DNA of 64,000 nucleotides from Scylla paramamosain (lineage: Eukaryota; Arthropoda; Malacostraca; Decapoda; Portunidae). Where the stretch lies: NCBI RefSeq assembly GCF_035594125.1, contig NC_087158.1, positions 3,195,001 through 3,259,000 of the forward strand, written 5' to 3'. Below, piece after piece: positions 5,823-60,414 of this stretch (within the stretch, counting starts at the first letter, position 1; each line of letters opens with the position of its first letter). The translations under genes and the position numbers were made by a program. The notes under the pieces are model-generated. The model had not been told where the DNA came from, did not search any database, and was given only the letters and a program-made list of their open reading frames with translations.

Positions 5823-5832
5823 ATGCCTCCTA

Positions 5833-5978
<146 letters not shown>

Positions 5979-6112: not shown

Positions 6113-8310
6113 TTTTTTTTTTTTTTATGTATGAGGAACACTGGCCGAGGGCAACAAAAATCCAATAAAGAAAATAGAAAAAACACTGAGATGACAGTCC
6201 CAGAAAAGGGTCCAAAGTGGTAGTCAAAAATTGAAGGATAAGTGTCTTGAAACCTCCCTCTTGAAGGAATTCAAGTCATAGGAAGGTGGAAATACAGAAG
6301 CAGGCAGGGAGTTCCACAGTTTACCAGAGAAAGGGATGAATGATTGAGAATACTGGTTAACTCTTGCATTAGAGAGGTGGACAGAATTGGGGTGAGAGAA
6401 AGAAGAAAGTCTTGTGCAGCGAGGCCACGGGAGGAGGGCAGGCATGCAGTTAGCAAGATCAGAAGAGCAGTTAGCATAAAAATAGCGGTAGAAGACAGTT
6501 AGAGATGCAACATTGCGGCAGTGAGAGAGAGGCTGAAGACAGTCAGTTAGAGGAGAGGAGTTGATGAGAAGAAAAGCTTTTGATTCCACCCTGTCTAGAA
6601 GAGCAGTATGAGTGGAACCCTCCCACACATGTGAAGCATACCCCATACATGGACGGATAAGGCCCTTGTACATAGTTAGCAGCTGGTGGGGGGGGGCGTT
6701 GTTAGAAAAACTGGAGGAGACGTCTCAGAACACCTAACTTCATAGAAGCTGTTTTAGCTAGAGATGAGGTATGGAGTTTCCATTTCAGATTATAAGTAAA
6801 GGACAGACCGAGGATGTTCAGTGTAGAAGAGGGGGACAGTTGAGTGTCATTGAAGAAGAGGGGATAGTTGTCTGGAAGGTTGTGTCGAGTTGATAGATGG
6901 AGGAATTGAGTTCTTGAGGCATTGAACAATACCAGGTTTGCTCTGCCCCAATCAGAAATTTTAGAAAGATCAGAAGTCAAGCGTTCTGTGGCTTCCCTGC
7001 GTGAAATGTTTACTTCCTGAAGTGTTCGACGTCTATTAATAAACGTGGAAAAGTGTAGGGTGGTATCATCAGCGTAGGAGTGGATAGGACAAGAAGTTTA
7101 GTTTAAGTCATTGATGAATAAAAGTGGGTGGGTGACAGAGAGAGTGGGTGACAGGACAGAATCATGAAGAACAACACTGTTAATAGATTCAGGAGAAGAA
7201 CAGTGACCGTCTACCACAGCAGCAATAGAACGGTCAGAAAGGAAACTTGAGATGAAGTTATAGAGAGAAGTATAGAAGCTGTAGGAGGGTAGTTTGAAAA
7301 TCAAAGCTTTGTGCCAGACTCTATCAAAAGCTTTTGATATGTCCAAGGCAATAGCAAAAGTTTCACCAAAATCTCTAAAAGAGGATGACTAAGACTCAGT
7401 AAGGAAAGCCAGAAGATCACCAGTAGAGCGGCCTTGACGGAACCCATACTGGCGATCAGATAGAAGGTTGTAACAAGATAGATGTTTAAGAATCTTCCTG
7501 TTGAGGATAGATTCAAAAACTTTAGATAGGCAGAAAAAAAAATAAAGCAATAGGACGGTAGTTTGAGGGATTAGAACGGTCATCCTTTTTAGGAACAGGC
7601 AGAATGTAGGCAAACTTCCAGCAAGAAGGAAAGGTAGATGTTCACAGACAGAGTTGAAAGAGTTTGACTAGGCAAGGTGCAAGCACGGAGGCACAATTTC
7701 GGAGAACAATAGGAGTCACCCCATCAGGTCCATAAGCCTTCCGAGGGTTTAGGTCAGCGAGGGAATGGAAAACATCATTGCAAAGAATTTTAATAGGTAG
7801 CATGAAGTAGTCAGAGGGTGGAAGAGAGGGAGGAATAAGCCCCGAATAAAAGGTTTGAGGAAAGAGTTGAACTTTAGAGATAGATGTGATAGCAGTGGTG
7901 CCATCTGGTTGAAATAAAGGATGGAAAGAAGAGGAAGCAAAGTTATTGGAGATATTTTTGGCTAGATGCCAGAAGTCACGAGTGCAGTTTGATCTTGAAA
8001 GATTTTGACACTTTCTATTAATGAAGGAGTTTTTAGCTGGAGAACAGACTTGGCATGGTTCCGGGCAAAAAATATAAAGTGTATGAGATTCTGGTGATGA
8101 AAGGCTTAAGTACCTTTTGTGGGCCACCTCTCTATCATGTATACCACGATAACAAGCTGTGTTGAACCAAGGTTTGGAAGGTTTAGGTCGAGAAAAAGTG
8201 AGGAATGTACGCCTCCATGCCAGACACTATCACCTGTTATGCGGTCGACACACAAAGACGGGTCTCTGACATGGAAGCAGTAGTCATTCCAAGGAAAATC
8301 AGCAAAATAC
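6113..8310 (-). pseudogene. Retrotransposon copy B (RT half, tRNA-side parental copy)
   Basis: This is a 5'-truncated non-LTR element with a poly(T) 3' end at about 6,113-6,126. On the reverse strand it carries the [12 protein letters not shown] linker, [32 protein letters not shown] and the C-terminal region ending near [10 protein letters not shown]. Frameshifts break it into pieces. Its 3' flank is not LINE sequence, unlike the copies at later unit joints. Its 5' end lies 40 bases from an initiator tRNA gene. It is probably the original copy beside the tRNAs. Confidence 0.85.
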
Positions 8311-8350
8311 ATCACGGCCTCACTGCCGCCCCCAAAAACTACCGTCAGAT

Positions 8351-9440: not shown

Positions 9441-10215
9441 TGGAGGCTGGCTGAGGAACAGGACAGTGGTGCTGTGGCTGTACGTCAATGTTTCAGATGT
9501 CGTAAATATTTCTTTTCTCCCCCAGGCTACTGATATATGTCCTTCTTCTATGGAAACCCCTGGGTCATAGAGCCTGATTGAGAAATAGTGTTTGCAGCTG
9601 TATAGAGACACTTCAAATGTTATAAATTATTTCTTATCTTCTCTAATCTACTGACACACATCCCTCTTATCCCCACCAGTCTTGCATTTAGCAGGCTGGC
9701 TGAGGAATGGTGTGTGTGGCTGTGGGTAAATGTCTCAGGTGTTGCAAATGTTTCTTTCCTTCCTATTTTTTTTATGTAAGAGGGCACTGAACAGGCGCAA
9801 CAAAGACTAAGAAAAAAAAAAAGGAAAAAGAAAAAAAAAAAAAGGCCCTCTCAGAGTATCAGTTCGTAAAGAAAGGTCAAAAAGTATCATCCAAAACTAC
9901 CTCCTTGAAAGAGTACAAGTCGTAGGAAGGATGAATTACAGAAACAGGCAGGGAGTTCCAGAGATTACCAGAAAAGGGACGAATAATTTAGAATACTGGT
10001 TAACTGTCGTATTAGACAGGTGGACAGAACAGAAGTGAAAGAAAGAGGAAAGTCTTGTGCAGTGATTTATGTCTTTTATCCCCACCAGGAGGATTATTCT
10101 CTTTCTACCATTTATTACTGTTCCCTTCCCTTCACTATGTTCATTCTTGTTCCCTACAAATGTTTCTTTCTCCCTTGACCTGCTGACACACATCCCTCTT
10201 GTCCCCAACCAGGTG
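9440..10215. repeat. Degenerate ~130-bp tandem repeat, interrupted by a retrotransposon 3' end
   Basis: Diverged copies of a unit carrying GGCTGGCTGAGGAA, then TGTGGCTGT, then AAATGTTTCTTTC and ACACATCCCTCTT occur at about 9,440, 9,580, 9,700 and 10,150. Between the last two lies a retrotransposon 3' fragment. The arrangement is copied at 25,885-26,660 and, partly, at 49,220-49,800. Confidence 0.65.
9768..10061 (-). pseudogene. Retrotransposon copy C: 3' end only
   Basis: On the reverse strand this matches the last ~290 bases of the element: the Ser-Phe-Pro-rich C-terminus with VHLSN and VNQYS, the 3' UTR, and the terminal TACATAA motif with a poly(A) tail (poly-T on the plus strand). It is more diverged than copies B and E, so it is an older insertion. 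Confidence 0.75.
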
Positions 10216-16582: not shown

Positions 16583-17704
16583 CTATTCTTCTTTCTCGTC
16601 TTCCTCCTCCTCCTCCTCCTCCTCCTCCTCCTTCTCCTCTTCTTTCTCGTCCTCCTCCTCCTCCTCTTCCTCCTCCTCCTCCTCTTCCTCTTCGGCCTCC
16701 TCAAAGTAGTGATCCAGCTGGTGAGGGGTGAGGATGCCGGCAAGGATAGCGAGGCAGTGAGCCACGCGGGCGAGGGAGGGGCGGCGGCTCGCGTCCCGCG
16801 CAGTGCACGAGCGTGACAGACTCCTGAGGGGACCTATCAAGAAGTCGTGAGGGCACCTGTCCATCAGGCAGCCCATCAGGAAGCCGAGGCTGTACACGTC
16901 ACCTGAGGGGAACACACGCCCTCCTCCAAACACCTCAGGCGCCATCCAGGGGGCTTGCCGGGAGTGTGAGGCCTCAGTGAAGCTGTCCTCGTCACTCTGG
17001 CCTTCCTCCTTCTCCACCACCACGCTGCCGCTGGAGGAAGCCCACCCAAAGTCGATGATGTGGAAGCGGGGCGCGTTCACTGAGCCACTGAAGGTGATGT
17101 TGTTCCACTTCAAGTCGTTGTGCACGATGCCTTTGGCGTGCACTTCCTCCAGACACTGGCACACGGCCTGCAGTGACTCCAGGAACCCCTTCACGGAACA
17201 CACCTCCAGGTACGTGTCGTACGTCTGCCCCACGAACTCCTGCACCAGGGCGGGGGGCGCCTGGCACACGCCTGCAACACACACACCCACACACCTCAGA
17301 CACCACCACACGCCACCCGTCAACTATACTCCATACAATATTGCTGTTTTTCTGTGTATACATGCATGACAACACAAGTTACCTAGAAGCCGAGGCGCCC
17401 CGCCTGCTCCACCGAGCTGCAGCAGAAAAGTAGCCTCCTTCAGCACCGGCAGCAGCTGGTCGGCTTGCAGCAGCTCCTTCACCACCGCCGGGGCGCCATT
17501 CTCTTGCCCCACCAGCCTCACGGAGCCAAAGCCGCCCACACCCAGGAGGAGTCCGCCGCCCAGGCCGTGCAGCTCCGCCTTGGTGAGGACGGGCACCTGG
17601 CGGCGGATCACCTCACAGTAACCTTGCACGGCCTTGGCTTCTTCCCCACACTCCTGCACTGTCTCGCCCTCGTCTTGCCGCACGCAAGACTTGGACGAGT
17701 ACAT
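16583..17704 (-). CDS. Protein kinase, copy 1 (two exons, tail truncated by nonsense codon)
   Basis: Exon 1 is 17,383-17,704 and exon 2 starts at 17,271. The 111-base intron has GT (CTAG/GTAACT) and TTGCAG ends. The predicted product is 336 residues. Motifs are the glycine loop GVGGFG (55-60), the VVK lysine (76), a candidate alpha-C Glu (90), the catalytic loop HNDLKWNN (158-165), DFG (181-183), MAPE (217-220) and SGDVYSLG (230-237). It should phosphorylate Ser/Thr or Tyr, but the family and substrate are unknown. HND replaces HRD. There is no signal peptide or membrane segment. The start is the first in-frame ATG; frames further upstream need GTG. The ~500 bases of upstream minisatellite and GC-rich DNA seen in copies 2 and 3 are missing here. 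Confidence 0.75.
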
Positions 17705-17769
17705 TGTGTCCTTCTGCTTCGCTAGATCGACTATTTGTTGGCTGGTTTGCCGCTGCTTACAATTCCTGT

Positions 17770-17895
17770 CCACGCCTTGTTTGTGCCTCGCTAGAGTCTC
17801 TCTTTGGTCGCTTTTTTGTCGCTGCATACAATTCTTTGACACGATTTCTTTGTACTTCGCTAGAGTGTCTCTTTGCTCGCTTGTTTCTTGCCGAA
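17770..17895. repeat. Residual GCTTCGCTAG minisatellite upstream of kinase copy 1
   Basis: Two to three diverged units containing CTCGCTAGAG, GTGTCTCTTT and GCTCGCTTG. This is the contracted counterpart of the arrays at 34,380-34,960 and 56,100-56,610. Confidence 0.8.
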
Positions 17896-18575: not shown

Positions 18576-18676
<101 letters not shown>

Positions 18677-18682
18677 TGTATG

Positions 18683-22088
<3,406 letters not shown>

Positions 22089-22299
22089 TTGTGTTCGTGT
22101 ATGAATGTATTTATGTGCGTTTTTACATGTATGTGCTCATGTGCGTGTGTATGTCTGTACTTACGTGCGTACGTGTTGTTATCTGAACTTGAGTGTGTGT
22201 GTGTTTGTGCGTATACAAGTAATGCACGCATGTCATGTATACTTGTAATACATGTATATAATGTAAGTATGCGTGCATGTGTGTGTATGTATGCATTGC

Positions 22300-22612
22300 T
22301 TATTATTAATGGACGATACAGTTATACTTGCCACTTCAAGGGACGTGTGTGAAAGGAAGCTTAATATTCTGTTTGATTTCTGTAATGAGTATGGCATCAT
22401 TTCAAATGAAAAGAAATTGAAGTTCTTTGTTATAAATGGGGACAGTAATGATTAATTATCTTTTTATAATAATAATGTGAATATACAATATTGTCCTAAA
22501 TATCTGTGCAAGGTTTATGGATGACGGCAAAGCAAGCTCGGTGATCTCACTTCATTATCCCGCTGTGTCCGAATTAGTTAATAAATTCACAATTTTTTTT
22601 ATGCTAATATTG
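22300..22612 (+). pseudogene. LINE-2 fragment: RT motif C region (unit 1)
   Basis: The plus frame reads [14 protein letters not shown], then CNEYGIISNEKKLKFFVING, then with one frame change ARFMDDGKASSVISLH and NKFTIFF-like residues. This is the xMDD catalytic box and following region of a LINE reverse transcriptase distinct from element D. It is 5'-truncated next to TG/TA-alternating DNA and 3'-interrupted by copy E. Copies recur at 36,480, 42,510 and 58,170. Confidence 0.7.
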
Positions 22613-22615
22613 ACT

Positions 22616-24756
22616 TCTTTTTTTTTTATGTAGGAGAGACACCGACCAAGGAAACAAAACTCCCATAAAAAAAAAAAGGCCCACTGAGATGCCGGTCCTC
22701 GGATGGGTTCCCAAGCGGTAGTCAAAAACTGAAGGACAAGTGTCCTGAAACCTCCCTCTTCAAGGAGTTCAAGTCATGGGATGGTGGAAATATAGATACA
22801 GGCAGGGAGTTCCAGAGTTTACCTGAGAATGGGATGAATGAATGAAAATACTGATTAACTCTTGCATTAGAGAGGTGGACACAATAGAGGTGAGAGAAAG
22901 AAGAACGTCTTGTGCAGCGAGGTCGCGGATGGAGGGGAGGCCAGGCAGAAGACCACTTAGTATGAAAATAACGGTAGAAGATAGCTAGAGAAACAATATT
23001 GCGGCGATGAGAAAGAAGCTAAAGACGGTCAGTTACAGGAGAGGAGTTTATGAGACGAAAAGCTTTTGAATCCACCCTGTCTAAAAGAGTGGTATGAGTG
23101 GAATCCCCTCAGACATGTAAAGTATATTCCATACATGGACGGATAAGGCCCTTGTACAGAGTTATCAGCTGGGGGGATGAGAAAAACTGGCGGAGACGTC
23201 TCAGAACACCTAACTTCATAGTAGCTGTTTTAGCTAGAGATGAGATGTGAAGTTTCCAGTTTGAATTATTAGAAAAGGAAAGGCTAAGCATGTTCAGTGT
23301 AGAAGAGGGAGACAGTTGAGTGTCATTGAAGAAGAAGGGATAGTTGTTTGGAAGGTTGTGTCGAGTTGATAGATGGAGGAATTGAGTTTTTGAGACATTG
23401 AACAATATCAAATTTGCTCTGCCCAATCAAAAATTTTAGAAAGATCAGAAGTCAGCCGTTCTGTGACTTCCTTGCGTGAAATCCTTACTTCCTGAAGTGT
23501 TGGACGTCTATAAAAAGACGTGGAAATGTGTAGGGTGGTATCATCAGCGTAGGAGTGGATAGAACTAGAAGATGAGTTTAGCTCACTGATGAACAAAAAG
23601 AAGAGAGTGGGTGACAGGACAGAACCCTGAGGAAACCAATGTTAATAGATTTAGGAGAAGAACAGTGACCGTCTACCACAGCAGCAATAGAACGGTCAGA
23701 AAGGAAACTTGAGATGAAGTTTGAGAGAGAGGGATAGGAGCTGTGGGAGGGTAGTTTGGAAATCAAAGCTTTGTGCCAGACTCTATCAAAAGCTTTTGAT
23801 ATGTCCAAGGCAAAAGCAAAAGTTTCACCAAAATCTCTAGAAGAGGATGACCAAGACTCCGTAAGGAAAGCCAAACAATCACCAGTAGAGCGGCCTTGAC
23901 GGAACCCATACTGGCGATCAAATAGAAGTTTGTGAAGAGATAGATATTTAAGAATCTTCGTGTTGAGGATAGATTAAAAAAAACTTTGGGTAGGCAGGAA
24001 ATTAAAGCAATAGGACGGGGATTTGAGTTTTGAGGGATTAGAACGTTTATCCTTTTAAGGAGCAGGCTGAATGTAGGCAAACTTCCAGCAAGAAGGAAAG
24101 GTAGATGTTGACAGACAGAGTTGAATTAGTTTGACTAGGCAAGGTGGAAACACGGATGCACAGTTTCAGAGAGCAATAGGAGGGACCCCATCACGTCCAT
24201 AAGCCTTCCGAGGGTTTACGCCAGCGAGGGCATGGAAAACATCATTGCGAAGAATTTTAATAGGTAGCATGAAGTAGTCAGAGGGTGGAAGAGAGGGAGG
24301 AATAAGCCCTGAATAGAAGGTTTGAGGAAAGAGTTGAACTTTAGAAAGAGATGTGACAGCAGTGGTGCCATCTGGTTGAAAAAAAAGGAGGAGAAGAAGA
24401 AGCAAGTTATTCCAGAAATCACGAGGTGAGTTAGATCTTGAAAGATTTTGACACTTTCTATTAATGAAGGAGTTTTTGGCTAGTTGGAGAACAGACTCGG
24501 CATGGTTCCGAGCAGAAATAAAAAGTGTATGAAATTCTGGTGATGAAAGGGTTAAGTACCTTTTGTGGGCCACCTCTCTATTATGTATACAACGAGAACA
24601 AACTGTGTTGAACCAAGATCTGGAAGCTTTAGGTCGAGAAAAAGTGAGGAATGTACGCCTCCATGCCAGACACTATCACCTGTTATGTGGTCGACACACA
24701 AAGACGGGTCTCTGACATGGAAGCAGTAGTCATTCCAAGGAAAATCAGCAAAATAC
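22616..24756 (-). pseudogene. Retrotransposon copy E (unit 1/2 joint, hybrid)
   Basis: On the minus strand this is an RT-half copy of element D's family with poly(T) at its 3' end. [22 protein letters not shown] and YADD are still legible, split by frameshifts and small deletions. Its 3' flank is LINE-2, as for copy G. Its 5' end, at AGCAAAATAC 40 bases from the tRNA, is that of copy B. This combination marks it as the recombination joint between repeat units. Confidence 0.85.
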
Positions 24757-24796
24757 ATCACGGCCTCACTGCCGCCCCCAAAAACTACCGTCAGAT

Positions 24797-24868
24797 TAGC
24801 AGAGCGTGGTTTCGATCCACGGACCTCTGGGTTATGGGCCCAGCACGCTTCCACTGCGCCACTCTGCT
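24797..24868 (-). tRNA. tRNA-iMet: Initiator tRNA-Met (CAT), downstream member of pair 2
   Basis: All 72 bases equal the gene at 8,351, with the same CAT anticodon, C33 and ATCGAAA T-loop. It keeps the T5 terminator on the minus strand just past the 3' end. Confidence 0.97.
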
Positions 24869-24950
24869 GCTACTTCTAGGGGCTTTGAGCAACTGACTCC
24901 TCCACACTACCTTGGGCGTGTAATAACAATAAAGAGAAGCTTTTCCTTGT

Positions 24951-25022
24951 TAGCAGAGCGTGGTTTCGATCCACGGACCTCTGGGTTATGGGCCCAGCAC
25001 GCTTCCACTGCGCCACTCTGCT
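24951..25022 (-). tRNA. tRNA-iMet: Initiator tRNA-Met (CAT), upstream member of pair 2
   Basis: Same sequence as its partner at 24,797. The 82-base gap between them again lacks a T4 run on the minus strand. Confidence 0.97.
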
Positions 25023-25885
25023 GCGCTGTTCATTTGTCTCGTGTCTTCAGTCACTCTTATCCTTACAGTACACTTCCTCGTGTCCGTCAACTTTGAAACA
25101 CGAGTGCTGGAGAATATTCCGTTTTTTTTTTTTTTTTTTTAATACCGTCAAAAATATACCTAAAGAATGGAAGAAAATATGAGGGAAAAGAACGATATAC
25201 GGAAAAGAAAAATAAAGAAAGTTGAAACAAACAAACATGAGAAAATAAGGATTGAATTTATTTACTTTTTGTAATTGTTCAGGTGTAGCGTCTGTAACTT
25301 TTGTTATAGTTAGTGTTTTGATTTCCATCCACCAATAGGATCCCTGCACGGCAGGACAGGGTGTGTGTGTTCATGTGTTGGTGTCACAGGAGTTGAGGTG
25401 GTTCCCACTGCAAGGGCAGTCACTTCATCCCTCTCCTCAAGAGAAGTGTTTTATTATTTTTAATGTGTTTTTAGCCTTTTTTAGTTTGTCTGGTCAGGTC
25501 GCGATTGTGTTGTGCCAAAACGTAACTACGTAAAAGAACGCTGCGCCTGAACTTGAGTTTGTATTAATGGGCTGAATGTTTATCAGTTTTAGGAAATTAT
25601 TGGTTGAATATTTGAAGATTCGGCACTTTTGTAGGACTTATTTATTTGAATGGCAAAGTCCTACTAGAGGAAAGAGACAGACGAGGGACATACAGTATTG
25701 GAATGGATAAGCAGTATTTATGTGTAATATGTATTTTTTAATCTTTATATTTTGTCAGTAAACTAAAACTAAAAGCTAGTGATGCCACAGTGCCCCCAGT
25801 GTGGCATCGCTCCCTGCACGCCTCGCCTCTGTCAACAACGTACGTGTTACAACTCGCTGCCCTCTCGCCTGCACACCCTGCTTCA
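25023..25885. other. Unit 2 spacer after the tRNA pair
   Basis: Near-identical to 8,577-9,440. No gene is recognised. The poly(T) near 25,125 differs slightly in length. Confidence 0.6.
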
Positions 25886-26660
25886 TGGAGGCTGGCTGAG
25901 GAACAGGACAGTGGTGCTGTGGCTGTACGTCAATGTTTCAGATGTCGTAAATATTTCTTTTCTCCCCCAGGCTACTGATATATGTCCTTCTTCTATGGAA
26001 ACCCCTGGGTCATAGAGCCTGATTGAGAAATAGTGTTTGCAGCTGTATAGAGACACTTCAAATGTTATAAATTATTTTTTTTCTTCTTTAATCTACTGAC
26101 ACACATCCCTCTTATCCCCACCAGTCTTGCATTTAGCAGGCTGGCTGAGGAATGGTGTGTGTGGCTGTGGGTAAATGTCTCAGGTGTTGCAAATGTTTCT
26201 TTCCTTCCCATTTTTTTATGTAAGAGGGCACTGAACAGGCGCAACAAAGACTAAGAAAAAAAAAAAGGAAAAAGAAAAAAAAAAAAGGCCCTCTCAGAGT
26301 ATCAGTTCGTAAAGAAAGGTCAAAAAGTATCATCCAAAACTACCTCCTTGAAAGAGTACAAGTCGCAGGAAGGATGAATTACAGAAAGAGGCAGGGAGTT
26401 CCAGAGTTTACCAGAAAAGGGACGAATAATTTAGAATACTGGTTAACTGTCGTATTAGACAGGTGGACAGAACAGAAGTGAAAGAAAGAGGAAAGTCTTG
26501 TGCAGTGATTTATGTCTTTTATCCCCACCAGGAGGATTATTCTCTTTCTACCATTTATTACTGTTCCCTTCCCTTCACTATGTTCATTCTTGTTCCCTAC
26601 AAATGTTTCTTTCTCCCTTGACCTGCTGACACACATCCCTCTTGTCTCCACCAGGTGGGC
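25885..26660. repeat. Degenerate ~130-bp tandem repeat, unit 2
   Basis: Counterpart of 9,440-10,215, with the same GGCTGGCTGAGGAA-bearing units and the same retrotransposon 3' fragment inserted. Confidence 0.65.
26210..26505 (-). pseudogene. Retrotransposon copy C' (3' end), duplicate of copy C
   Basis: Same insertion as 9,768-10,061, carried along by the segmental duplication. It holds only the C-terminal codons, 3' UTR and A-rich tail. Confidence 0.75.
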
Positions 26661-29044
26661 TTTTCTTTCCTTCATTTCCTTTCCCTTCCCTTTGTTCTTC
26701 CTTCAATTACTTTCCTTTTCCCCTTTATATTCAATATTCCCTTTTCTCTTTTCTTCAAATGTATCTTCTTTTCCTCTTCCACTTCACATTAGATCTCTGT
26801 TTACTATTTACTGATCCTTGCAAGGAATTAATCACACGGATTTTATTTATTTTTTCTATTTATTTAAATCTTAGATCAAAAAGGAAATATATTGTTACTA
26901 GCAATAAAAGAGGTTGTTATTAGCAGCAGCTAAGTTGTACAAACACACAGTCCCTCGTCACTAACAATGAATGAAGCTGCACAAACACCCTGACCTTCAT
27001 ATAGTACATGATGAAGGCAGGAGCCACCATTCATTCAGGCCAACAGTTTTCATTAGTCATCGCTCCCTACAAATACTATTTTTTTTTATCTATTTTATTT
27101 TATTTATTTATTTTTTTGTACATAAATCACAAATTCAGGCAATGCTTGATAAATTTAAATTGACAATAATTCCCATTTTCGTTTTTCTTTGACCGTTTTT
27201 TTATTTTTTTTATTTTATTTTTTTTCTTTCTTCTTATTTTACAAGTCACAAATTTCAGGTAATGCTTAATGCATTTCAAATGACAACAATTCTCGTATTT
27301 TTATTTATTCTTTTTCTTTTATTTTCTTGTTTTCAAAATCACAAATTTCACGCAATGTTTAATACATTCTACATGGCAGCAATACAGTCTTTGGGACAAA
27401 GGTGGCTGACTTTCAACCATCCACTTAAAAGCCAAACACGATACTATTTTTTTTTCCTCCGTTATTCTCCGTTTTCCTTTTTTTTTTTTTTTACATATAT
27501 CACAGAAATTTTTTTTTTTTTTATCACGACAACAATTTACATTAGACATCGCTCACTAGTCATCGTTTTTTTCTTTTTTTTTTTTTATATTTTTTACACA
27601 AATCACAAATTCACCATTCATTCATGTCAACAGTTTTCATTATCTTTTTTTTCATTTTCTCTTTTTTTCTTTTCTTTTTTCTTTTTAACTTTTTTTGTAA
27701 TTTTATATTTGATTTAAGTTTTTTATTCTATCTATTTTATTTTTCTCTTTTATTTTCTTCATACTTTTACCTTCTTTACATTTATTTTTTATTAAATTTT
27801 TTTTTTTTATCTTTATATCTTTTATTTCTTTTAACCTGTTTTTTTATCTTTTTTATCTTTTTCTTTCCATTTTTCTCTCTTATTCTTTTGCACAAATCAC
27901 AAATTTCATAATAAATATAAAATTCACCATTCATTCATGCCAACAACTTTCATTTTCCTTTTTCCAATATTTTTTTGATCATTTTGTATATATGTTTTTT
28001 TTTTTAATTTGTATCATTTAATTTTTTCTTTTAACTTTCTATCAATCTATCTATTTGTATCATTTCTTATCTATTTCTTATCTTTGTCTATATAATTTTT
28101 TCTTTTATCTTTTATCTGTTTTATCTTTATTGATATTATATTTTCTTTTCTTTTTTTTCCTTTTATGTCTTTTATAGTTTTCTATCTTTTATTTCTTTTT
28201 TATATTTTTGTTTCAACTTTTTTCTTTTTTCTTTCTTTTTTCTTTCCTTTTATTTTTTACAGCAATCATACATTTCATGACAAAAACCATTTATTCATGC
28301 CAACAACTTTCATTATCTTCATTATTTTCTCTTTTTCATCTTTTTAATCTTTATCTTTTTTTATTTTGTATATCTTTTTATCTTTTAATCTTTTTATCTT
28401 TTATCTGTATATATCTTTGATCTTTTATATTTCTTCTTTTTTTATACATTCGTCATTATTATTATTATTATTTTTTTTTTTGTCTTCTTTAACCCTTTGA
28501 CCAGTACTTGATACATCTTTCTTGAATTACTAATCCCTGTGAGACATCTTTTCTTGTTCTACAGTCACCTCCAATCTTTAAACTGTGTACAAATTGCAAA
28601 ATCTGTTCTTCTTCACCCCCTTCTTTCCTGTTCATGCTTATGTAAAGATTTCAAGCATTACTTCTGCTGCTGCTAATTGTTTCGTATTGCCGTGAAAGGA
28701 TTATGTTTTTTTTTTTTCTTATCTTATTTATTTATTTTATCTTTTAATTTTATTTATTAATTTTTTTATATTCTAATTTTTTTTATCATTTTTTTGTCAT
28801 TTCTGACCTTTTTGTTTTATTTCATCTTATTTTTTTTCTTATTTATTTTTCTATTTTATTTTTTCATTTTATTTTTCTTACTTTTTATCTTTTCGCTTTT
28901 TCCCATTTCTTCTTTTTTTTGCCTTTTTAATTTTAATTTTTCACGTTTTGATTATTTATTCATTTTCATTTTTATTTTATCTATCTTTTTTTTCTTTTTA
29001 TCTCTTGTTTTTTATTTATTTATTTATTTTATTTTATTTTTATT
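26506..29044. repeat. T-rich region with conserved cores, unit 2
   Basis: Base-by-base counterpart of 10,062-12,609. Cores keep their sequence while the poly-T spacers differ by many small indels. It includes the MITE-like block at 28,489-28,705. Confidence 0.75.
28489..28705. mobile_element. MITE-like short element, unit 2 copy
   Basis: Begins TTTAACCCTTTGA and ends TGAAAGGATTA. Only a few substitutions separate it from the unit 1 copy. Confidence 0.4.
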
Positions 29045-29705
29045 CATAAACTGTTAATGGACTCAGAAACACAAGTGTTCCTGTCTGGGGAGACAGGTCA
29101 CCACGCAGAGTGTCCGTGGCGCCCCTCACCAGCCCATCCCACCACCTTGTGTACTGGTGCACAAATTGTCTTTGGTGGTGACAGGTTCTACATCTAGGTA
29201 TCACAAGTGCCTCTTGCTTGTCCTTGTCTCCCTCGTCCTTTTTCTTCCTCTTCTTCTGTTACACTATCAAGGACTTTCTCCTCTTCCTTCTCTTTCTCTT
29301 CCTCGTCTTCCTCCTCTTTCTTTTCCTCTTCTTACGTTACACTATCGTTCAACTCCTCTCTCTCTCTGTTACACTTTCATTGGCTTCCTCCTCTTCCTTC
29401 CTTTCTTTTTCCTCTTCCACATCTCCTTTATTTTTCTTTTCCTCTTTTTATGTTACACAATCGTTGAATGAATTCTTCCTTCTCTTTGTCTTCCTCTTTC
29501 TCATCTCCCTCCTCTCTCTCTTCCTTTTCTCGTCATTTACATTACTAGCTTCCTCATCTTCCTCGTTCTTCACTCCCTCATCCTCCTTTTCCTCTTGTTT
29601 CTCTTCCTCTTCCTTTGTCACTGTATCTTTGGCTTCCTCCTGTTTCTAGTCTTTGTTTTCCTCTTCTTCTGTGCTAATTTCATCACTTCTTTCCTTGTTA
29701 CACAG
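29045..29705 (-). pseudogene. Acidic-repeat coding relic, block 1 of unit 2
   Basis: Same minus-strand content as 12,610-13,375. The terminal frame through CRTCHHQRQFVHQYTRWW to FLSPLTVYE and a stop stays open. The middle has lost about 90 bases relative to unit 1. Confidence 0.5.
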
Positions 29706-36774: not shown

Positions 36775-38780
36775 ATTTCCTGAAACCTCCCTCTTCAAGG
36801 AGTTCAAGTCATGGGATGGTGGAAATATAGATACAGGCAGGGAGTTCCAGAGTTTACCTGAGAATGGAATGAATGAATGAGAATACTGACTAACTCTTGC
36901 ATTAGAGAGGTGGTCACAATAGAGGTGAGAGAAAGAAGAACGTCTTGTGCAACGAGGTCGCGGATGGAGGGAAGGCATGCAGTTAACAAGGTCAGAAGAC
37001 CAGTTATCATAAAAATAACGATAGAAGATTGCAAGTGATACAACATTGCGGCGATGAGAAAGAGGCTAAAGGCAGTCAGTTACAGGAGAGGAGTTTATGA
37101 GACGAAAAGCTTTTGAATCCACCCTGTCTAAAAGAGTGTTATGGGTGGAATCCCTCCAGACAAGTAAAGCATATTCCATACGTGGACGGATAAGGCCCTT
37201 GTACAGAGTTACCAGCTGGGGGGATGAGAAAAACTGACGGAGGCGTCTCAGAACACCTAACTTCATAGAAGCTGTTTTAGCTAGAGATGAGAAGTGAAGT
37301 TTCCAGTTTGAATTATTAAAAAATGACAGGCTGAGCATGTTCAGTGTAGAAGAGGGAGACAGTTGAGTGACATTGAAGAAGAAGGGATAGTTGTTTGGAA
37401 GGTTGTGTCGAGTTGAGGAGGAATTGAGTTTTTGAGGCACTGAACAATATCAAATTTGCTCTGCCCCAATCAGAAATTTTAGAAAGATCAGAAGTCAGCC
37501 GTTCTGTGGCTTCCTTGCGTGAAATGTTTACTTCCTGAAGTGTTGGACGTCTATAAAAAGACGTGGAAAAGTGTAGGGTGGTATCATCAGCGTAGGAGTG
37601 GATAGGACAAGAAGTTTAGTTTAGTTCATTCATGAATAAAAAGAAGAGAGTGGGTGACAGGACAGAACCCTGAGGAACATCACTGTTAATAGGTTTAGGA
37701 GAAGAACAGTGACCGTCTACCACAGCAGCAATAGAACGGTCAGAAAGGAAACTTGAGATGAAGTTTGAGAGAAGGATAGGAGCTTTGTGCCAGACTCTAT
37801 CAAAAGCTTTTGATATGTCCAAGGCAACAGCGAAAGTTTCACCAAAGTCTGTAAAAGAGGATGACCAAGACTCAGTAAGGAAAGCCAGACAATCACCAGT
37901 AGAGCGGCCTTGACGGAACCCATACTGGCGATTAAATAGAAGTTTGTGAAGGGATAGATATTTAAGAATCTTCGTGTTGAGGATAAATAAAAAAAAAAAA
38001 AAAAAACTTTGGGTAGGCAGGAAATTAAAGCAATAGGACGGGGATTTGAGTTTTGAGGGATTAGAACGTTCACCCTTTTAAGGAGCAGGCTGAATGTAGG
38101 CAAACTTCCAGCAAGAAGGAAAGGTAGATGTTGACAGACAGAGTTGAATTAGTTTGACTAGGCAAGGTGCAAACACGGATGTACAGTTTCGGAGAACAAT
38201 AGGAGGGACCCCATCACGTCCATAAGCCTTCCGAGGGTTTACGCCAGCGAGGGCATGGAAAACATCATTGCGAAGAATTTTAATAGGTAGCATGAAGTAG
38301 TCAGAGGGTGGAAGAGAGGGAGGAATAAGCCCTGAATAGAAGGTTTGAGGAAAGAGTTGAACTTTAGAGAGAGAAGTGATAGCAGTGGTGCCATCTGGTT
38401 GAAAAAAAAGGAGGGGAAGAAGAAGCAAAGTTATTCCAGAAGTCACGAGGGGAGTTAGATCTTGAAAGATTGACACTTTTTATTAATGAAGGAGTTTTTG
38501 GGTAATTGGAGAACAGACTCGGCATGGTTCCGAGCAGAAATAAAAAGTGCATGAAATTCTGGTGATGAAAGTGTTAAGTACCTTTTGTGGGCCACCTCTC
38601 TATCATGTATACCACGAGAACAAGCTGTGTTGAACCAAGGTCTGGAAGGTTTAGGTCGAGAAAAAGAGTGAGGAATGTACGCCTCCATGCCAGACAGCAT
38701 CACCTGTTATGTGGTCGACACACAAAGACGGGTCTCTGACATGGAAGCAGTAGTCATTCCAAGGAAAATCAGCAAAATAC
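36775..38780 (-). pseudogene. Retrotransposon copy F (unit 2/3 joint, hybrid)
   Basis: Minus-strand RT-half copy with the same 5' end beside the tRNA as B and E. Its last ~150 bases (poly-T end and 3' UTR) are deleted with the identical breakpoint seen in copy H at 58,473. Several frameshifts and a poly(A) expansion near 37,985 disable it. Confidence 0.85.
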
Positions 38781-38820
38781 ATCACGGCCTCACTGCCGCC
38801 CCCAAAAACTACCGTCAGAT

Positions 38821-42509: not shown

Positions 42510-42840
42510 GCTTATTATTAATGGACGATACACTTATGCTTGCCACTTCAAGGGACGTGTGTGAAAGGAAGCTTAATATTCTGTTTGATTTCTGTAATGA
42601 GTATGGCATCATTTAGAAAATTTTCATTTAGAAAAGAAATTGAAGTTCTTTGTTATAAATGGGGACAGTAATGATTAATTATCTTTTTATAACAATAATG
42701 TGAATATACAATATTGTCCTAAATATCTGTGCAAGGTTTATGGATGACGGCAAAGCAAGCTCGGTGATCTCACTTCATCATCCCGCTGTGTCTGAATTAG
42801 TTGATAAATTCGTCATTTTCTTTAATGTTAATATTGACTT
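42510..42840 (+). pseudogene. LINE-2 fragment, 5' part of the interrupted copy (unit 3)
   Basis: The RT motif C box MDDTL and VINGD are followed, after a frame change, by ARFMDDGKASSVISLHHPAV and DKFVIFFNVNID. A ~10-base insertion near 42,617 is specific to this copy. Copy G is inserted at its end, and the reading resumes at 43,721. Confidence 0.7.
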
Positions 42841-43720
42841 TTTTTTTTTATGTAGGAAGGATACCGGCCAAGGGCAACAAAATTCTAATAAAAAAAAATA
42901 AAAAAGACCACTGAGATGCCGATCCTCGAATGGGTTCCGAAGAGATAGTCAAAAATTGAAGGAGAAGTGTCCTGAAACCTCCCTCTTCAAGGAGTTCAAG
43001 TCATGGGAAGGTGGAAATATAGATACAGGCAGGGAGTTCCAGAGTTTACCTGAGAATGGGATGAATGAATGAGAATACTGAGTAACTTTTGCATTAGAGA
43101 GGTGGACACAATAGGGGTGAGAGAAAGAAGAAAGTCTTGTGCAGCGAGGTCACGGATGGAGGGAAGGCATGCAGTCAGCAAGGTCAGAAGACCAGTTATC
43201 ATAAAAATAACGATAGAAGATTGCAAGAGATACAACATTGCGGCGATGAGAAAGAGGCTAAAGACAGTCAGTTAGAGGAGAGGAGTTTATGTGACGGAAA
43301 GCTTTTGAATCCACCCTGTCTAAAAGAGTGGTATGGGTGGAATCCCCCCAGACAAGTAAAGTATATTCCATACAAGGACGGATAAGGCCCTTGTACAGAG
43401 TTATCAGCTGGGGGGATGAGAAAAACTGGCGGAGACGTCTCAGAACACCTAACTTCATAGAAGCTGTTTTAGCCAGAGATGAGATGTGAAGTTTCCAGTT
43501 TGAATTATTAGAAAAGGACAGGCTGAGCATGTTCAGTGTAGAAGAGGGAGACAGTTGAGTGTCATTGACGAAGAAGGGATAGTTGTCTACAAGGTTGCTT
43601 CGAGTTGATAGATGGAGGAATTGAGTTTTTGATGCACTGAACAATACCAAGTTGGCTCTACCCCAATCAAAAATTTTAGAGAGATCAAAAGTCAGGCGTT
43701 CTGTGGCTTCCCTGCGTGAA
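42841..43720 (-). pseudogene. Retrotransposon copy G (nested in LINE-2, parental copy)
   Basis: An 880-base copy with a poly(T) 3' end, covering the RT C-terminal part up to the region just before YADD. It is 5'-truncated at GCGTGAA. LINE-2 sequence lies on both sides, so both ends of the original insertion are visible. Copies E, F and H share its 3' flank but not its 5' end. Confidence 0.85.
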
Positions 43721-44640
43721 CTCTATTATGACATATGTGTACAAAATGAGAGTATTTAATGCTGCAGTTTTGTCTTCCCTACTGCATAGTTCTGAGACTT
43801 GGCTAATCTCAAATATCAAGGTGATGAGTCACTACAATCAATGAGTAAAAAGTCTTGTTGGGGCAAGGAAAAACACTTCTACTAACCTGTGTCTTGTTGA
43901 GTCTGATATACCGCCGATGAAATTCCTTTTGTGCAAGAAGAGGAAATCATCTGTAAAAGAAAAGCTGAAGTCACACGATATGAAGGAACCATTTACGTAT
44001 GTACACGAATTTTGTAAAAGGCACACATCACGAGGGTAGAGGTTCATTCAGAAGGCATCGGACTATGATGTTTGTGAGCCGCTACAACCAATGACAGACT
44101 CAGTAAGGAGTAAGCCTGACTCGGCTACAAAAAATGTCACGTACAGGTCAACACTTAACACCAGTCTTGCAGTACACAATGTTCCTTACGGTAAAGATTT
44201 TATAGCTGACCATCTCCGCATGGTCAGCTATCAGACGCAAGACTGCGTCTGATGTCTCACAATTTGAAAATAGAATCAGGAAGGAGGAGCACAACACCAG
44301 TAAAGTTAAGGCTGTCCAATTGTAACCAAGGTGAAGTTCAGGATGAGCCTCATGTTCTGTTAGAGTGCCCCTTGACTAATGGTTGGAGGGAAATTATCCT
44401 TCTTTAGATTTCCCGTCAGCAGAAAATTTGCTTAGTGAGAGAGTTAACTGTGATATGCTCTGTAAATTAATTTTTGATGTATTGCATGTTGAGAGAACCA
44501 TTGTGTAATTTTTAGTTTTAGTGTTTAAGTATTTTAATAGTTTTTAGCATATATGTAACGCAGTTTTGTTTTCCCTTTTTATATTGTGTTGACATAGTGT
44601 TTCTGATCGCACAAGATATATAATGTGAAAAAAGACCTCA
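43721..44640 (+). pseudogene. LINE-2 fragment, C-terminal part and 3' UTR
   Basis: The plus frame reads YKMRVFNAAVLSSLLHSSET, typical of the segment after the RT domain in many LINEs. Further on, after frameshifts, it has DEPHVLLECPLT, which resembles the C-terminal zinc-knuckle (H..L..CP) end. Several stops are present. It completes the LINE cut by copy G. To 44,838 the rest is AT-rich, with no gene. Confidence 0.65.
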
Positions 44641-44839
44641 CTTATTTTCATTTATTTATTTATTTTTTTCTTTTTGGTCAAAAAGTTTCTATTTCTGGTT
44701 TTGTTAAATACTATTTTACATTTTCTTTTATGAAGATCTGTAAGAAAAAATAATTGTAGATTTGAGCATAAACTAGTACTAAGTGCATCTGTATGTCTAT
44801 ATGTGTTTGTGTGTGTATACACTACAAAGATTTTCTTTT

Positions 44840-47610
44840 TTTTTTTTTATGTATGAGGGACACTGGCCAAGGGGAACAAAAATCCAGTTAAAAAGAATAA
44901 AAACCCCACTGCGATGCCAGTCCCAGGAAAGGATCCAGAGCTGTAGTCAGAAAGTAAAGGATAAGTGTCTTGCAACCTTCCTCTTGAAGGAATTCAAGTC
45001 ATAGGAAGGTGGAAATACAGAAGCAGGCAGGGAGTTCCAGATTTTACCAGAGGAAGGGATGAATGATTGAGAATACTGGTTAACTCTTGCATTAGAAAGG
45101 TGGACAGAATAGGGATGAGAGAAAGAAGAAAGTCTTGCGCAGCGAGGGCGCTGGAGGAGGGCAGGTATGCAGTTAGCAAGACCAGAAGAGCAGTTAGCAT
45201 GAAAAAAGCGGTAGAAGACAACTAGAGATGCAACACTGCGGCGATGAGAAAGAGGCTGAAGACAGTCAGTTAGAGGAGAGGAGTTGATGAAAAGAAAACT
45301 TTAGATTCCACACTGTCTACAAGAGCGGTATGAAAGGAACCTCTCCAAACATGTGAAGCATACTCCATACATGGACGGATAAGGCCCTTGTATAGAGTTA
45401 GCAGCTGGGATGTGAGAAAAATTGGCGGAGACGTCTCAGAACGCCTAACTTCATAGAAGCTGTTTTAACAAGAGATGAGATGTGAAGTTTCCAGTTCAGA
45501 ATATAAATAAGGGACAGACCGAGGATGTTCAGTGTATAAGAAGGAGACAGTTGAGTATCACCGAAGGAGAGGGGATAGTTGTCTGGAAGGTTGTGTTGAG
45601 TTGATAGATGGAGGAACTAAGTTTTTTGAGGCATTGAACAACACCAAGTTTGGTCTGCCCAATCATAAATTAGAAGGATCAGAAGTAAGGGTTCCGTGGC
45701 TTCCGTGCATTAAATGTTTACTTCCTGAAGTATTGGACGTCTATCAAAAGACGTGGAAAAGTGCAAGGTGGTATCACCAGCGTAGGAATGGATAGGACAA
45801 GAAGTTTACTTTAGAAGGTCATTGATGAATAATAAGAAGACAGTGGGTAACAGGACAGAACCCTAAGGAACACCACTGTTAATAGATTTACGAGAAGAAC
45901 AGTGACCGTCTACCACAGCAGCAATAGAACGGTCAGTAAGGAAACTTGAGATGAAATTACAGAGAGAAGTATAGAAGCTGTAGGAGGGTAGTTTGCAAAT
46001 CAAAGCTTTCTGCTAGACTCTGTCAAAAGCTTTTGATGTATCCAAGGCAACAGCAAAAGTTTCATCAAAAACTCTAAAAGAGACTCAGTAAGGAAAGTGA
46101 AACAATCACCAGTAGAGCGGCCATGACGGAACCCATACTGGAGATCAAATGAAAAGTTGTGAAAGGATAGATGTTTAAGAATCTTCCTGTTGAGAATAGA
46201 TTAAAAAACTGTAGATAGGCAGGAAATTAAAGCAATAGGACGGGATTGGAATTCTGAGGGATTAGAACGGTCACCTTTTAAAAAAACAGGCTGAATGTAG
46301 GCAAACTTCCAGCAAGAATGAAAAGTAAATGTTGACAGACAGAGGTGAAAGAGTTTGACTAGGCAAGGAGTAAACATGGAGGAACAGTTTCGGTAAACAG
46401 TAGGAGGGACGCCATCAGGTCCATAAGCCTTCCGACGGTTTTGCCCAGCGACCTTCAAAACCTTCCAGGTTTGGAAGGTTTAGGTCGAGAAAAAGAGTGA
46501 GGAATGTATGCCTCCATGCCAGACACTATCACCTGCTATGTGCTCGGCACACAAAGACGGGTCTCTGTCACGGAAGCAGTAATCATTCCAAGGAAAATCA
46601 GTAAAATACCTCCTCAGATCTCCCAAAATAGCAGAGGGAAAACGCCAGAGGCACCTTCAGTTAGGTGGATCCTGAGGAGGGATTGGAGCGACAGGACAAG
46701 ATACAAATATGAGATTGTGATCGGAGGACCCCAACGGAGAAGAAGGGCAACAACATAAGCAGAAGGATTAGAGGTCAGGAAAAAGGTCATTTTGGGCGTA
46801 TCTCCAAGACGGTCAGGAATACGAGTAAGGTGTTGCACCAATTGCTCTAGGTCGTGGAGGATAGCAAAGTTGAAGGCTAGTTCACCAGGATGGTCAGTGT
46901 AGGGAGAGGAAAGCTAAAAGCTGGTGGTGAACACTGAATTCTCCAAGAATAGAGATCTCTGTGCAAAAGGGAAGAGAGTCAGAATGTGCTCCACTTTGGA
47001 AGTTAAGTAGTCAAAGAATTTCTTATAGTCAAAGGAGTTAGGTGAGAGGTATACCGTACAGATAAATTTAGTTTGAGAGTGACTCTGTAGTCGTAGCCAG
47101 ATGGTGAGAAACTCGGAAGATTCAAGAGCGTGGGCACGAGAGTAGGTTAAGTCATTGCGCACATAAACACAACATCCAGCATTGGATTGAAAATGAGAAT
47201 AGAGAAAGTAGGAGGAAGCAGAAAAGCAGAAGTTAATGAAGAAAAGTTAAGGGGGGTGTCAAGACACTTAAGGTGGTTGTCAGAAGGGCAGTCCGACCTC
47301 GGGACATTTGTGGTCCCCTCCCCAGATGAAGACAACGAGGCTGGTGAAGGAATCACCATGATAATTTTGAATTTTCAAGTGAAGGGTGTGTGTGTGTTAT
47401 TAGGTGATTGTAGTTTGGTGTGGAGGAAGAGAGTTGTCTTCAGGGGGCAGGCTGTGACTGCCCCCTTGTGTTGTGAGACACAAAGGGAAACGTTCAGTGA
47501 GGTCACAGCTGGGTTTAATAATAAGTTCACAGCACCCCCTGATCCAGTGCTTTAGACCTCATTGGGAGTAATTATCGTTTCGGCAGGTGCCTACTGCCTC
47601 CTCCTTTGAG
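44840..47610 (-). pseudogene. Retrotransposon copy I: 5'-complete, internal deletion
   Basis: The minus strand covers the poly(A) end, 3' UTR, RT, then a ~450-base deletion (the region matching 19,905-20,350 of element D is missing near 46,458), then the endonuclease, the start MVIP and a 5' UTR reaching GGCAGTAGGCACCTGCC. The linker [16 protein letters not shown] and the endonuclease region are legible with frameshifts. It provides the best 5' end for the family. Confidence 0.82.
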
Positions 47611-47666
47611 GAGGAAGTACGAGAATATTTATCATTGTGTATGTGCAAATGTGTATACGTATGTGC

Positions 47667-48974
<1,308 letters not shown>

Positions 48975-56870: not shown

Positions 56871-56888
56871 ATACACTGCCACGTGTTT

Positions 56889-58169: not shown

Positions 58170-58472
58170 ATTGCTTATTACTAATGGACGATACACTTAT
58201 ACTTGCCACTTCAAGGGACGTGTGTGAAAGGAAGCTTAATATTCTGTTTGATTTCTGTAATGAGTATGGCATCATTTTAAATGAAAAGAAATTGAAGTTC
58301 TTTGTTATAAATGGGGACAGTAATGATTAATTATTTTTTTATAATAATAATGTGAATATACAATATTGTCCTAAATATCTGTGCAAGGTTTATGGATGAC
58401 GGCAAAGCAAGCTCGGTGATCTCACTTCATCATCCCGCTGTGTCTGAACAAGTTGATAAATTCACCATTTCC
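58170..58472 (+). pseudogene. LINE-2 fragment: RT motif C region (unit 4)
   Basis: [14 protein letters not shown] to VINGD as in the other units, ending at the same ATTCACCATTT deletion point as unit 2. Confidence 0.7.
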
Positions 58473-60374
58473 TGAAACCTCCCTCTTCAAGGAGTTCGAG
58501 TCATGGGAAGGTAAAAATATAGATACAGACGGGGAGTTCCAGAGTTTACCTGAGAATGGGATGAATGAATGACAATACTGATTAACTCTTGCATTAGAGA
58601 GGTGGACACAATAGGGGTGAGAGTAAGAAGAACGTCTTGTGCAGCGATGTCGCGGATGGAGGGGAGGCATGCAGTTAGCAAGGTCAGAAGACCAGTTAGC
58701 ATGAAAATAACGATAGAAGATTGCAAAAGGAACAACATTGCGGCGATGAGAAAGAGGCTAAAGACAGTCAGTTAGAGGAGAGGAGTTTATGTGACGGAAA
58801 GCTTTTGAATCCACCCTGTCTAAAAGAGTGGTATGGGTGGAATCCCCCCAGACAAGTAAAGTATATTCCATACAAGGACGGATAAGGCCCTTGTACAGAG
58901 TTATCAGCTGGGGGGATGAGAAAAACTGGCGGAGACGTCTCAGGACACCTAACTTCATAGAAGCTGTTTTAGCTAGAGATGAGATGTGAAGTTTCCAGTT
59001 TGAATTATTAGAAAAGGACAGGCTGAGCATGTTCAGTGTAGAAGAGGGAGACAGTTGAGTATCATTGAAAAGAAGGGAGAGTTGTTTGGAAGGTTGTGTC
59101 GAGTTGATAGATGGAGGAATTGAGTTTTTGAGACATCGAACAATATCAAATTTGCTCTGCCCCAATAAGAATTTTCAGAAAGATCAGAAGTTACCCTTTC
59201 TGTGGCTTCCTTGCGTGAAATGTTTACTTCTTGAAGTGTTGGACGTCTATGAAAAGAGGTGGAAAAGTGTAAGGTGGTATCATCAGCGTAGGAGTGGATA
59301 GGACAAGAAGTTTAGTTTAAGTCATTGATGAATAAAAAGAAGAGAGTGGGTGACAGGACAGAACCCTGAGGAACACCACTGTTAATAGATTTAGGAGAAG
59401 AACAGTAATCGTCTACCACAGCAGCAACAGAACGGTCAGAAAGGAAACTTGAGATGAAGTTTGAGAGAGAAGGATAGGAGCTGTGGGAGGGTAGTTTGGA
59501 AATCAAAGCTTTGTGTCAGACTCCATCTAAGCCTTGACGGAACCCACACTGGCGACCAAATAGAAGTTTGTGAAGGGATAGATGTTTAAGAATCTTCGTG
59601 TTGAAGATAGTTAAAAAAAAAAAAAACTTTGGGTAGGCAGGAAATTAAAGCAATAAAATGGGAATTTGAGTTTTGAGGGATTAGAACGTTCACCCTTTTA
59701 AGGAGCAGGCTGAATGTAGGCAAACTTCCAGCAAGAAGGAAAGGTAGATGTTGACAGACAGAGTTGAATTAGTTTGACTAGGCAAGGTGCAAACACGGAT
59801 GCACAGTTTCGGAGAACAATAGGAGGGACCCCATCACGTCCATAAGCCTTCCGATGGTTTACGCCAGCGAGGGCATGGAAAACATCATTGCGAAAAATTT
59901 TTATAGGTAGCATTAAGTAGTCAGAGGGTGGAAGAGAGGGAGGAATAAGCCCTGAATAGAAGGTTTGAGGAAAGAGTTGAACTTTAGAGAGAGAAGTGAT
60001 AGCAGTGGTGCCATCTGGTTGAAAAAAAAGGAGGGGAAGAAGAAGCAAGTTATTCCAGAAGTCACGAGGGGAGTTAGATCTTGAAAGGTTCTGACACTTT
60101 CTATTAATGAAGGAGTTTTTGGGTAATTGAAGAACAGACTTGGCATAGTTCCGGGCAGAAATAAAGAGTGCATGAGATTCTGGTGATGAAAGAGTTAAGT
60201 ACCTTTTGTGGGCCACCTCTCTATCATGTATAGCACGAGAACAAGCTTTGGAAGGTTTAGGTCGAGAAAAAGAGTGAGGAATGTACGCCTCCATCACCTG
60301 TTATGTGGTCGACACACAAAGACGGGTCTCTGACATGGAAGCAGTAGTCATTCCAAGGAAAATCAGCAAAATAC
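58473..60374 (-). pseudogene. Retrotransposon copy H (unit 4/5 joint, hybrid)
   Basis: RT-half copy sharing the 3' deletion of copy F and the 5' end of B, E and F beside the tRNA. It also lacks the ~100 bases that hold motif A: CAGACTCCATCTAAG joins to CCTTGACGG near 59,530. Frames are broken throughout. Confidence 0.85.
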
Positions 60375-60414
60375 ATCACGGCCTCACTGCCGCCCCCAAA
60401 AACTACCGTCAGAT

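What the first reader, a model, noticed from the sequence alone, without database searches (positions are those of the whole stretch)
22616..24756. Unit joints are recombinant retrotransposons
Copy B (6,113-8,310) has a private 3' flank and a tRNA-side 5' end. Copy G (42,841-43,720) has LINE-2 on both sides. Copies E, F and H combine the LINE-2 3' flank of G with the tRNA-side 5' end of B. This is the product expected from unequal crossing-over between B-like and G-like copies, so the array's founding mechanism can be read directly.
Basis: partly seen in the sequence, partly recalled or inferred. Interest (0 to 1): 0.75.

Follow-up and report, generated by a model that had tools for sequence, protein, structure and literature searches.

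The report
Hybrid retrotransposons at tandem-repeat joints
In a repeated stretch of an animal genome, probably a crustacean's, the joints between repeats look like hybrids of two separate copies of a jumping gene, the ordinary scar of recombination between look-alike copies, although later reshuffling has blurred one of the two parents.

Summary
The window holds a tandem array whose joints (E, F, H) are copies of one non-LTR retrotransposon. The flank pattern is real: E, F and H share G's left flank (E/G 482/496 = 97.2%) and B's 5'-truncation point and tRNA-Met flank (E/B 989/996 = 99.3%). Ends of two different insertions, joined in register, are best explained by non-allelic homologous recombination (NAHR) between directly repeated copies.

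The predicted switch exists but is not simply G-to-B. All three hybrids leave G-like sequence near E 23,310-23,359 (against B: p 0.009, 0.0007, 0.0001). The next 1.3 kb is 8.5-9.9% from B, scarcely nearer B than C. Only the last ~70-130 bp and the tRNA flank are clearly B-like. The joint is a three-part mosaic; B or the joint was later overwritten.

F and H share a joint deletion, so one event copied with the units is likeliest. "Founding mechanism" is not shown: unit bodies differ by up to 23%, and H lies beyond G. The mechanism is known (mouse Abp L1 hybrid). No search supported the "LINE-2" label.

The parts
6113..8313 (-). Copy B: 5'-truncated element at the left edge of the array; private left (3') flank, tRNA-side right (5') end
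   Evidence: falls outside the G+E+F+H clade together with C, X and D
22088..22595 (.).
   Evidence: six pairwise identities 95.5-98.0%; translation; searches without support 22, 25, 28, 31, 32
22616..23310 (-). Joint E, segment 1: G-like
   Evidence: E/F/H + G clade 100/100 with stem 0.086 over 22,745-23,320; GE 92.9, GF 95.1, GH 96.2% over 22,627-23,340; first 118 columns E/G 101/118 against E/B 88/116 and E/X 94/114
23331..24626 (-). Joint E, segment 2: own lineage; E 116/1,283 from B and 129/1,287 from C; G does not extend past about 23,483
24690..24759 (-). Joint E, segment 3: B-like stub; at the 71 counted sites of 24,689-24,759 B equals E=F=H, while C differs at 5
24760..25755 (.). tRNA-side right flank shared with B (99.3%) and F (98.7%)
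24797..24868 (-). tRNA-Met (CAT), one of 7 identical copies in the window
24951..25022 (-). tRNA-Met (CAT), second of the pair
36778..38783 (-). Joint F: hybrid, with a deletion across the flank/element 3' end shared with H
42839..43720 (-). Copy G: 5'-truncated (~880 bp) element; at sites where E=F=H oppose B=C=X it is EFH-like at 39 of 40 up to E 23,336 and BCX-like at 5 of 5 beyond
43724..44700 (+). G's right flank (end approximate): translation reads as a possible continuation of the left flank's frame
   Evidence: no database support
58470..60377 (-). Joint H: hybrid with the same deletion as F and a further ~100 bp internal gap; lies beyond G in the array
18683..21970 (+). Copy C: near full-length element on the opposite strand with endonuclease and reverse-transcriptase domains; comparison copy
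44831..47605 (-). Copy D: long copy with internal deletions relative to C; comparison copy
47768..48812 (+). Copy X: 5'-truncated copy; comparison copy

Best explanation
Two copies of one endonuclease/reverse-transcriptase retrotransposon inserted independently in the same orientation about one unit apart: R1 beside a tRNA-Met pair (its right end is seen in B) and R2 inside another repeat at the far end of the unit (seen in G). Homologous recombination between R2 and R1 made a hybrid with R2's left end and R1's right end, joining unit end to unit start. That hybrid was then copied with the units as E, F and H; F and H descend from a copy that lost about 147 bp at the joint. Later exchange or conversion overwrote either B left of about 8,240 or the middle of the joint.

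Shown: exchanged flanks, shared junctions, in-register joining, a shared switch away from G, and a B-like right stub. Inferred: that R1 and R2 were independent insertions, crossing-over rather than another homologous repair route, the single origin, and which copy was overwritten.
For: Left junction and flank of E match G (97.2%). The right truncation point and flank match B (99.3%). B and G have different right ends. With parents G and B, E, F and H leave G at 23,310-23,330 (p 0.009, 0.0007, 0.0001), where E, B and G align without gaps. G itself, at sites where E=F=H oppose B=C=X, is EFH-like at 39 of 40 up to 23,336 and BCX-like at 5 of 5 beyond (permutation p 0.0003). Without using G: among informative sites with E=F=H, those with B=C opposing EFH fall from 41 of 66 to 33 of 105 across the switch (Fisher p 0.00013). 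B/E difference falls from 116/1,283 to 7/1,066 at the element's right end (p 2e-23; the second figure is 7/996 plus 70 matching stub sites, entered by hand). The order B-E-F-G is what unequal crossing-over predicts.
Against: Right of the switch C or X fits as second parent as well as B, and against D the switch is not significant (0 of 3, p 0.36, 0.075, 0.054). With G as child and E or F as one parent there is no significant switch (6 of 6 tests, p 0.42-0.85); only H gives one (3 of 3). Three of 12 tests on non-hybrid children were also p<0.05 (C twice, B once), so mosaicism is common in this family. E, F and H differ from each other by 5-6% inside the element, more than in their flanks. No target-site duplication was found at G, B or E. 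H lies beyond G. Unit bodies are more diverged than the joints.
Confidence: 0.7

Rival explanations
1. Which copy was overwritten (a version of the best explanation): the original R1 had the E/F/H middle, and B's element left of ~8,240 came later from a C-like copy by crossover or conversion, bringing its private left flank if it was a crossover. The R2 x R1 crossover then lies near E 23,310-23,359.
For: B falls outside the G+E+F+H clade with C, X and D and is 93.2% and 93.1% to C and X there. B matches C at 24,688 but E/F/H from 24,690 on. With C and E, F or H as parents B is itself mosaic (p 0.030, 0.0075, 0.020). No target-site duplication around B. The switch lies inside G's 880 bp.
Against: Equally explained if the joint rather than B was overwritten. 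In segment 2 the tree leaves B and C unresolved. The 24,688/24,690 boundary rests on single sites.
Confidence: 0.45
2. No crossover between elements: one ancestral E-like element sat at every joint, and B and G are later derivatives of it made by local deletion or replacement.
For: The copies sit at homologous array positions. G's neighbourhood carries later insertions (D, X). G shows no significant switch relative to E or F alone.
Against: G's right flank did not match the surroundings of E, F or H and reads as if it continued its left flank. This needs two independent replacements on opposite sides.
Confidence: 0.16
3. The joint arose by template switching in replication or by end-joining, not homologous recombination.
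For: Such routes also make tandem duplications, and could not be told apart once the joint has been overwritten (established knowledge; no call tests it).
Against: The elements are joined in register, with no gap among E, B and G at 23,300-23,365.
Confidence: 0.12
4. The mosaic is an assembly artefact of a repetitive array.
For: Highly repetitive window with many (TA)n tracts. Reads could not be inspected, and the own-genome search did not complete.
Against: Copies carry private indels and several percent substitutions; F and H share a deletion but lie in different surroundings.
Confidence: 0.05

Closest known systems
Mouse Abp gene-cluster duplication by NAHR between L1Md_T elements (PMC3669608; abstract, section list and 12 passages seen)
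   Same: LINE copies flank and join duplicated blocks; the middle copy is a hybrid whose diagnostic sites switch from one outer copy to the other at one breakpoint
   Different: There the hybrid matches one outer copy at 384 divergent sites and the other at 127; here only the G side and the far right end match, with an unassigned 1.3 kb middle. The element is a different retrotransposon and the array is more reshuffled
LINE-LINE-mediated NAHR in human copy-number variants (PMC4344489; abstract and section list seen)
   Same: Directly oriented LINE pairs recombine, with breakpoints inside the elements
   Different: That study used pairs over 4 kb and over 95% identical; here the G-B overlap is under 0.9 kb at about 86-90%
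Gamma-globin duplication by L1 recombination in primates (recalled, not read)
   Same: Old germline tandem duplication attributed to LINE recombination
   Different: Recalled only; details not checked

Membership tests
TE-mediated NAHR tandem duplication | Same-family elements in direct orientation at unit edges and joints | tested here: met
   B, E, F, G, H all on the - strand
TE-mediated NAHR tandem duplication | Joint element has the outer flank of one parent on one side and of the other parent on the other | tested here: met
   E left flank = G 97.2%, right flank = B 99.3%
TE-mediated NAHR tandem duplication | In-register switch of diagnostic sites from parent 1 to parent 2 | tested here: inconclusive
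   Switch away from G in E, F and H; a switch to B specifically not met (C and X fit equally) until about 24,690
TE-mediated NAHR tandem duplication | Parents are independent insertions with their own target-site duplications | tested here: inconclusive
   Different junctions, but no significant duplication at B or G
TE-mediated NAHR tandem duplication | Order R1 - hybrid(s) - R2 along the array | tested here: inconclusive
   B-E-F-G fits; H beyond G does not
TE-mediated NAHR tandem duplication | Unduplicated ancestral locus in an outgroup | not testable with these tools
   No relative's DNA found; own-genome search unanswered
Non-LTR retrotransposon (element of B-H) | Endonuclease plus reverse transcriptase and a 3' A-run | tested here: met
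   PF14529 7.5e-12, PF03372 3.5e-08, RVT_1 2.3e-07 and 2.1e-13 in the two frames of copy C; A-run at C's 3' end
Jockey or CR1-type clade | Position in a reverse-transcriptase tree | not tested
   Clade name recalled only
'LINE-2' flanking repeat | Recognisable relatives or RT domain | tested here: not met
   No hit; no Pfam match for three short pieces, and only one irrelevant match below cut-off for the joined reading

The most novel reading that the evidence does not exclude
The block running from the kinase-like gene through the hybrid joint to the tRNA-Met genes is repeatedly homogenised across units (kinase region 99.3-99.6%, left flank 95.5-98.0%, tRNA flank 98.7-99.3%) while the bodies between differ by up to 23%. 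The hybrid retrotransposon inside it is an active exchange site that keeps importing sequence from other family copies, which would explain its three-part mosaic and why E, F and H differ by 5-6% in the element but less in their flanks. Against it, the U1 and U2 bodies are 98.4% identical.
Probability: 0.3. Interest if true: 0.45.

Novelty: new member of a known kind. Interest (0 to 1): 0.3.

Why it matters
It gives a legible case in an invertebrate array of how two stray retrotransposon copies can supply the homology that duplicates a segment bearing tRNA and kinase-like genes. It also shows how exchange among copies can blur the parents, which limits reading a "founding event" from present-day joints. 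The mechanism itself is well established.

Tried and rejected
Rejected: a simple two-part G-to-B hybrid (segment 2 is 8.5-9.9% from B). Rejected: three independent crossovers as the likeliest history (same switch place in E, F and H; F and H share a deletion). Rejected: mosaicism by itself as proof of crossing-over (3 of 12 non-hybrid controls p<0.05). Not supported: reading the array's founding event from the joints (bodies 77.1-98.4% against 95.5-99.3% for joint flanks).

Led nowhere: identifying the 'LINE-2' flank; viral-contig relatives of the element and the kinase-like frame; target-site duplications; one decapod literature search (no paper held all five terms). The first self-comparison of flanks was swamped by (TA)n and its output was cut; it was repeated with dinucleotide runs masked. 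The 27 permutation tests and the 24 are not corrected for multiple testing, and E, F and H are not independent. The first eight-copy alignment included non-homologous flanks; the counts on the element use an element-only alignment.

Dropped before counting: element fragments at 5,196-5,834, 9,893-10,065, 26,336-26,508 and 49,344-49,651, and the part of D 5' of 46,612, were left out of the eight-copy alignment. Sites with a gap in any compared copy were left out of each count; the classes use only sites where E=F=H.

Full report
What is there. The 64 kb window is eukaryotic and probably from a crustacean. A protein search with the element's reverse-transcriptase frame gave 1,055 hits, of which 120 were listed. 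The window holds a tandem array: 6,114-13,217 matches 22,615-29,650 at 93.4%, and 32,316-37,787 matches 54,084-59,485 at 92.1%. Units carry tRNA-Met genes (7 in the window, identical in sequence); by recall they look like the initiator type. In three units there is a protein-kinase-like reading frame; two of the three were scanned and match Pkinase (5.3e-13 and 6.7e-13).

The element. Copies B, E, F, G, H and D lie on the - strand, C and X on the + strand. The near full-length copy C encodes endonuclease and reverse-transcriptase domains and ends in an A-run. The clade name (jockey/CR1-like) is recalled and was not tested.

The flanks. E, F, G and H share about 500 bp of left flank, six of six pairs at 95.5-98.0%. 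In E and G the element's T-run begins at the same flank position. B's left flank showed no match to it; part of it (5,196-5,764) is a fragment of the same element family. On the right, B, E, F and H end at the same element position and enter the same tRNA flank: B/E 989/996, B/F 972/983, E/F 970/983, and H over 111/111 and 166/168. G ends about 0.88 kb in, with another right flank. So E has the left junction of G and the right junction of B. F and H have the same right junction and left flank, but both lack a stretch of about 147 bp across the flank/element boundary, with the same breakpoint: a shared derived deletion.

Diagnostic sites. I aligned eight copies. With parents G and B, each of E, F and H switches from G-like to the other state between E 23,310 and 23,330 (permutation p 0.009, 0.0007, 0.0001). 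With X as second parent the place is the same; with C it is 23,355-23,359. E, B and G align without gaps there. At sites where E=F=H oppose B=C=X, G is EFH-like at 39 of 40 up to 23,336 and BCX-like at 5 of 5 beyond (permutation p 0.0003). The trees agree: over 22,745-23,320 G+E+F+H form a clade (100/100) on a stem of 0.086; over 23,331-23,483 E+F+H exclude G (94.5/93). Without using G, the share of informative sites at which B=C oppose EFH falls from 41 of 66 to 33 of 105 (p 0.00013).

What does not fit. Right of the switch the hybrids are not specifically B-like. Over 23,331-24,626 E, F and H differ from B at 116/1,283, 106/1,249 and 116/1,167 sites, and from C at 129/1,287, 116/1,253 and 123/1,171: nearer B in all three, but by about a percentage point or less. 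A direct C-against-B test gives a weak drift toward B on the right (p 0.06, 0.21, 0.30). By contrast the unit flank B/E differs at 7 of 996 sites and the unit bodies U1/U2 at 55 of 3,451. B becomes like E only at about 24,627-24,690; at the 71 counted sites of the stub B equals E=F=H while C differs at 5. The joint is therefore G-like / unassigned / B-like. Either B was overwritten left of about 8,240 by a C-like copy, or the joint's middle was imported from another copy. I favour the first, because it leaves a single crossover inside G's 880 bp, but the data do not decide.

Controls and results against. With G as first parent, 9 of 9 tests on E/F/H against B, C or X were p<0.05, and 0 of 3 against D. 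Of 12 tests on non-hybrid children, 3 were p<0.05 (C twice, B once). With G as child, the switch is significant with H as parent (3 of 3) but not with E or F (0 of 6). B as child of C and E, F or H is mosaic too (p 0.030, 0.0075, 0.020), and four of six tests among E, F, G and H were p<0.01. Inside the element E/F, E/H and F/H are 1,880/1,978, 1,773/1,885 and 1,769/1,869 identical (94-95%), less than in their flanks. Mosaicism is thus common in the family, and the flank exchange carries the argument. No target-site duplication was found at G, B or E.

Founding? Unit bodies fall into types: U1/U2 98.4%, U4/U5 94.9%, U2/U3 83.1%, type I against II 77.1%. Left joint flanks are 95.5-98.0%, tRNA flanks 98.7-99.3%, the kinase region 99.3-99.6%. 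The bodies, or some of them, therefore predate the present joint copies, or the joint block was homogenised later.

'LINE-2'. Translation of G's two flanks gives pieces that read like consecutive parts of a reverse-transcriptase frame, but that resemblance is recalled. Five calls (22, 25, 28, 31, 32) gave no supporting match. If the flanks are contiguous, G is an original insertion; this remains unproved.

Known precedents. The mouse Abp cluster shows the same architecture: outer L1 copies and a hybrid middle copy with one breakpoint (PMC3669608, abstract and passages). LINE-LINE NAHR is described as widespread in humans (PMC4344489, abstract and section list). I class this as a new member of a known kind.

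Noticed in passing
60,364-60,581: H's unit has one tRNA-Met where B, E and F have two. Its left and right parts match the first and second tRNA neighbourhoods, as expected if recombination between the two identical tRNA copies removed one.
   Followed up: partly
39,776 and 60,581-61,049: Identity to other units drops abruptly from 97-99% to about 77-83% just right of the tRNA block in U3 and U5, suggesting exchange breakpoints between old unit types.
   Followed up: partly
18,577-22,087; 47,605-47,767; 5,834-5,974: 5' ends of element copies C, D and the 5,196-5,834 fragment lie at or near long (TA)n tracts, and C has (TA)n on both sides; possible insertion into TA microsatellites.
   Followed up: partly
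16,583-17,842; 32,239-33,912; 53,881-55,632 (- strand): Kinase-like reading frame with a long acidic low-complexity tail, nearly identical between units (977/981 in two comparisons); no match to it in U3.
   Followed up: partly
about 21,890-21,957 (copy C 3' end): The last ~65 aligned bp of C look G-like while the rest is B/X-like (p 0.0008 and 0.0004), so C is also mosaic.
   Followed up: partly
9,893-10,065; 26,336-26,508; 49,344-49,651: Short 3' fragments of the same element inside unit bodies, not used in the alignments.
   Followed up: no
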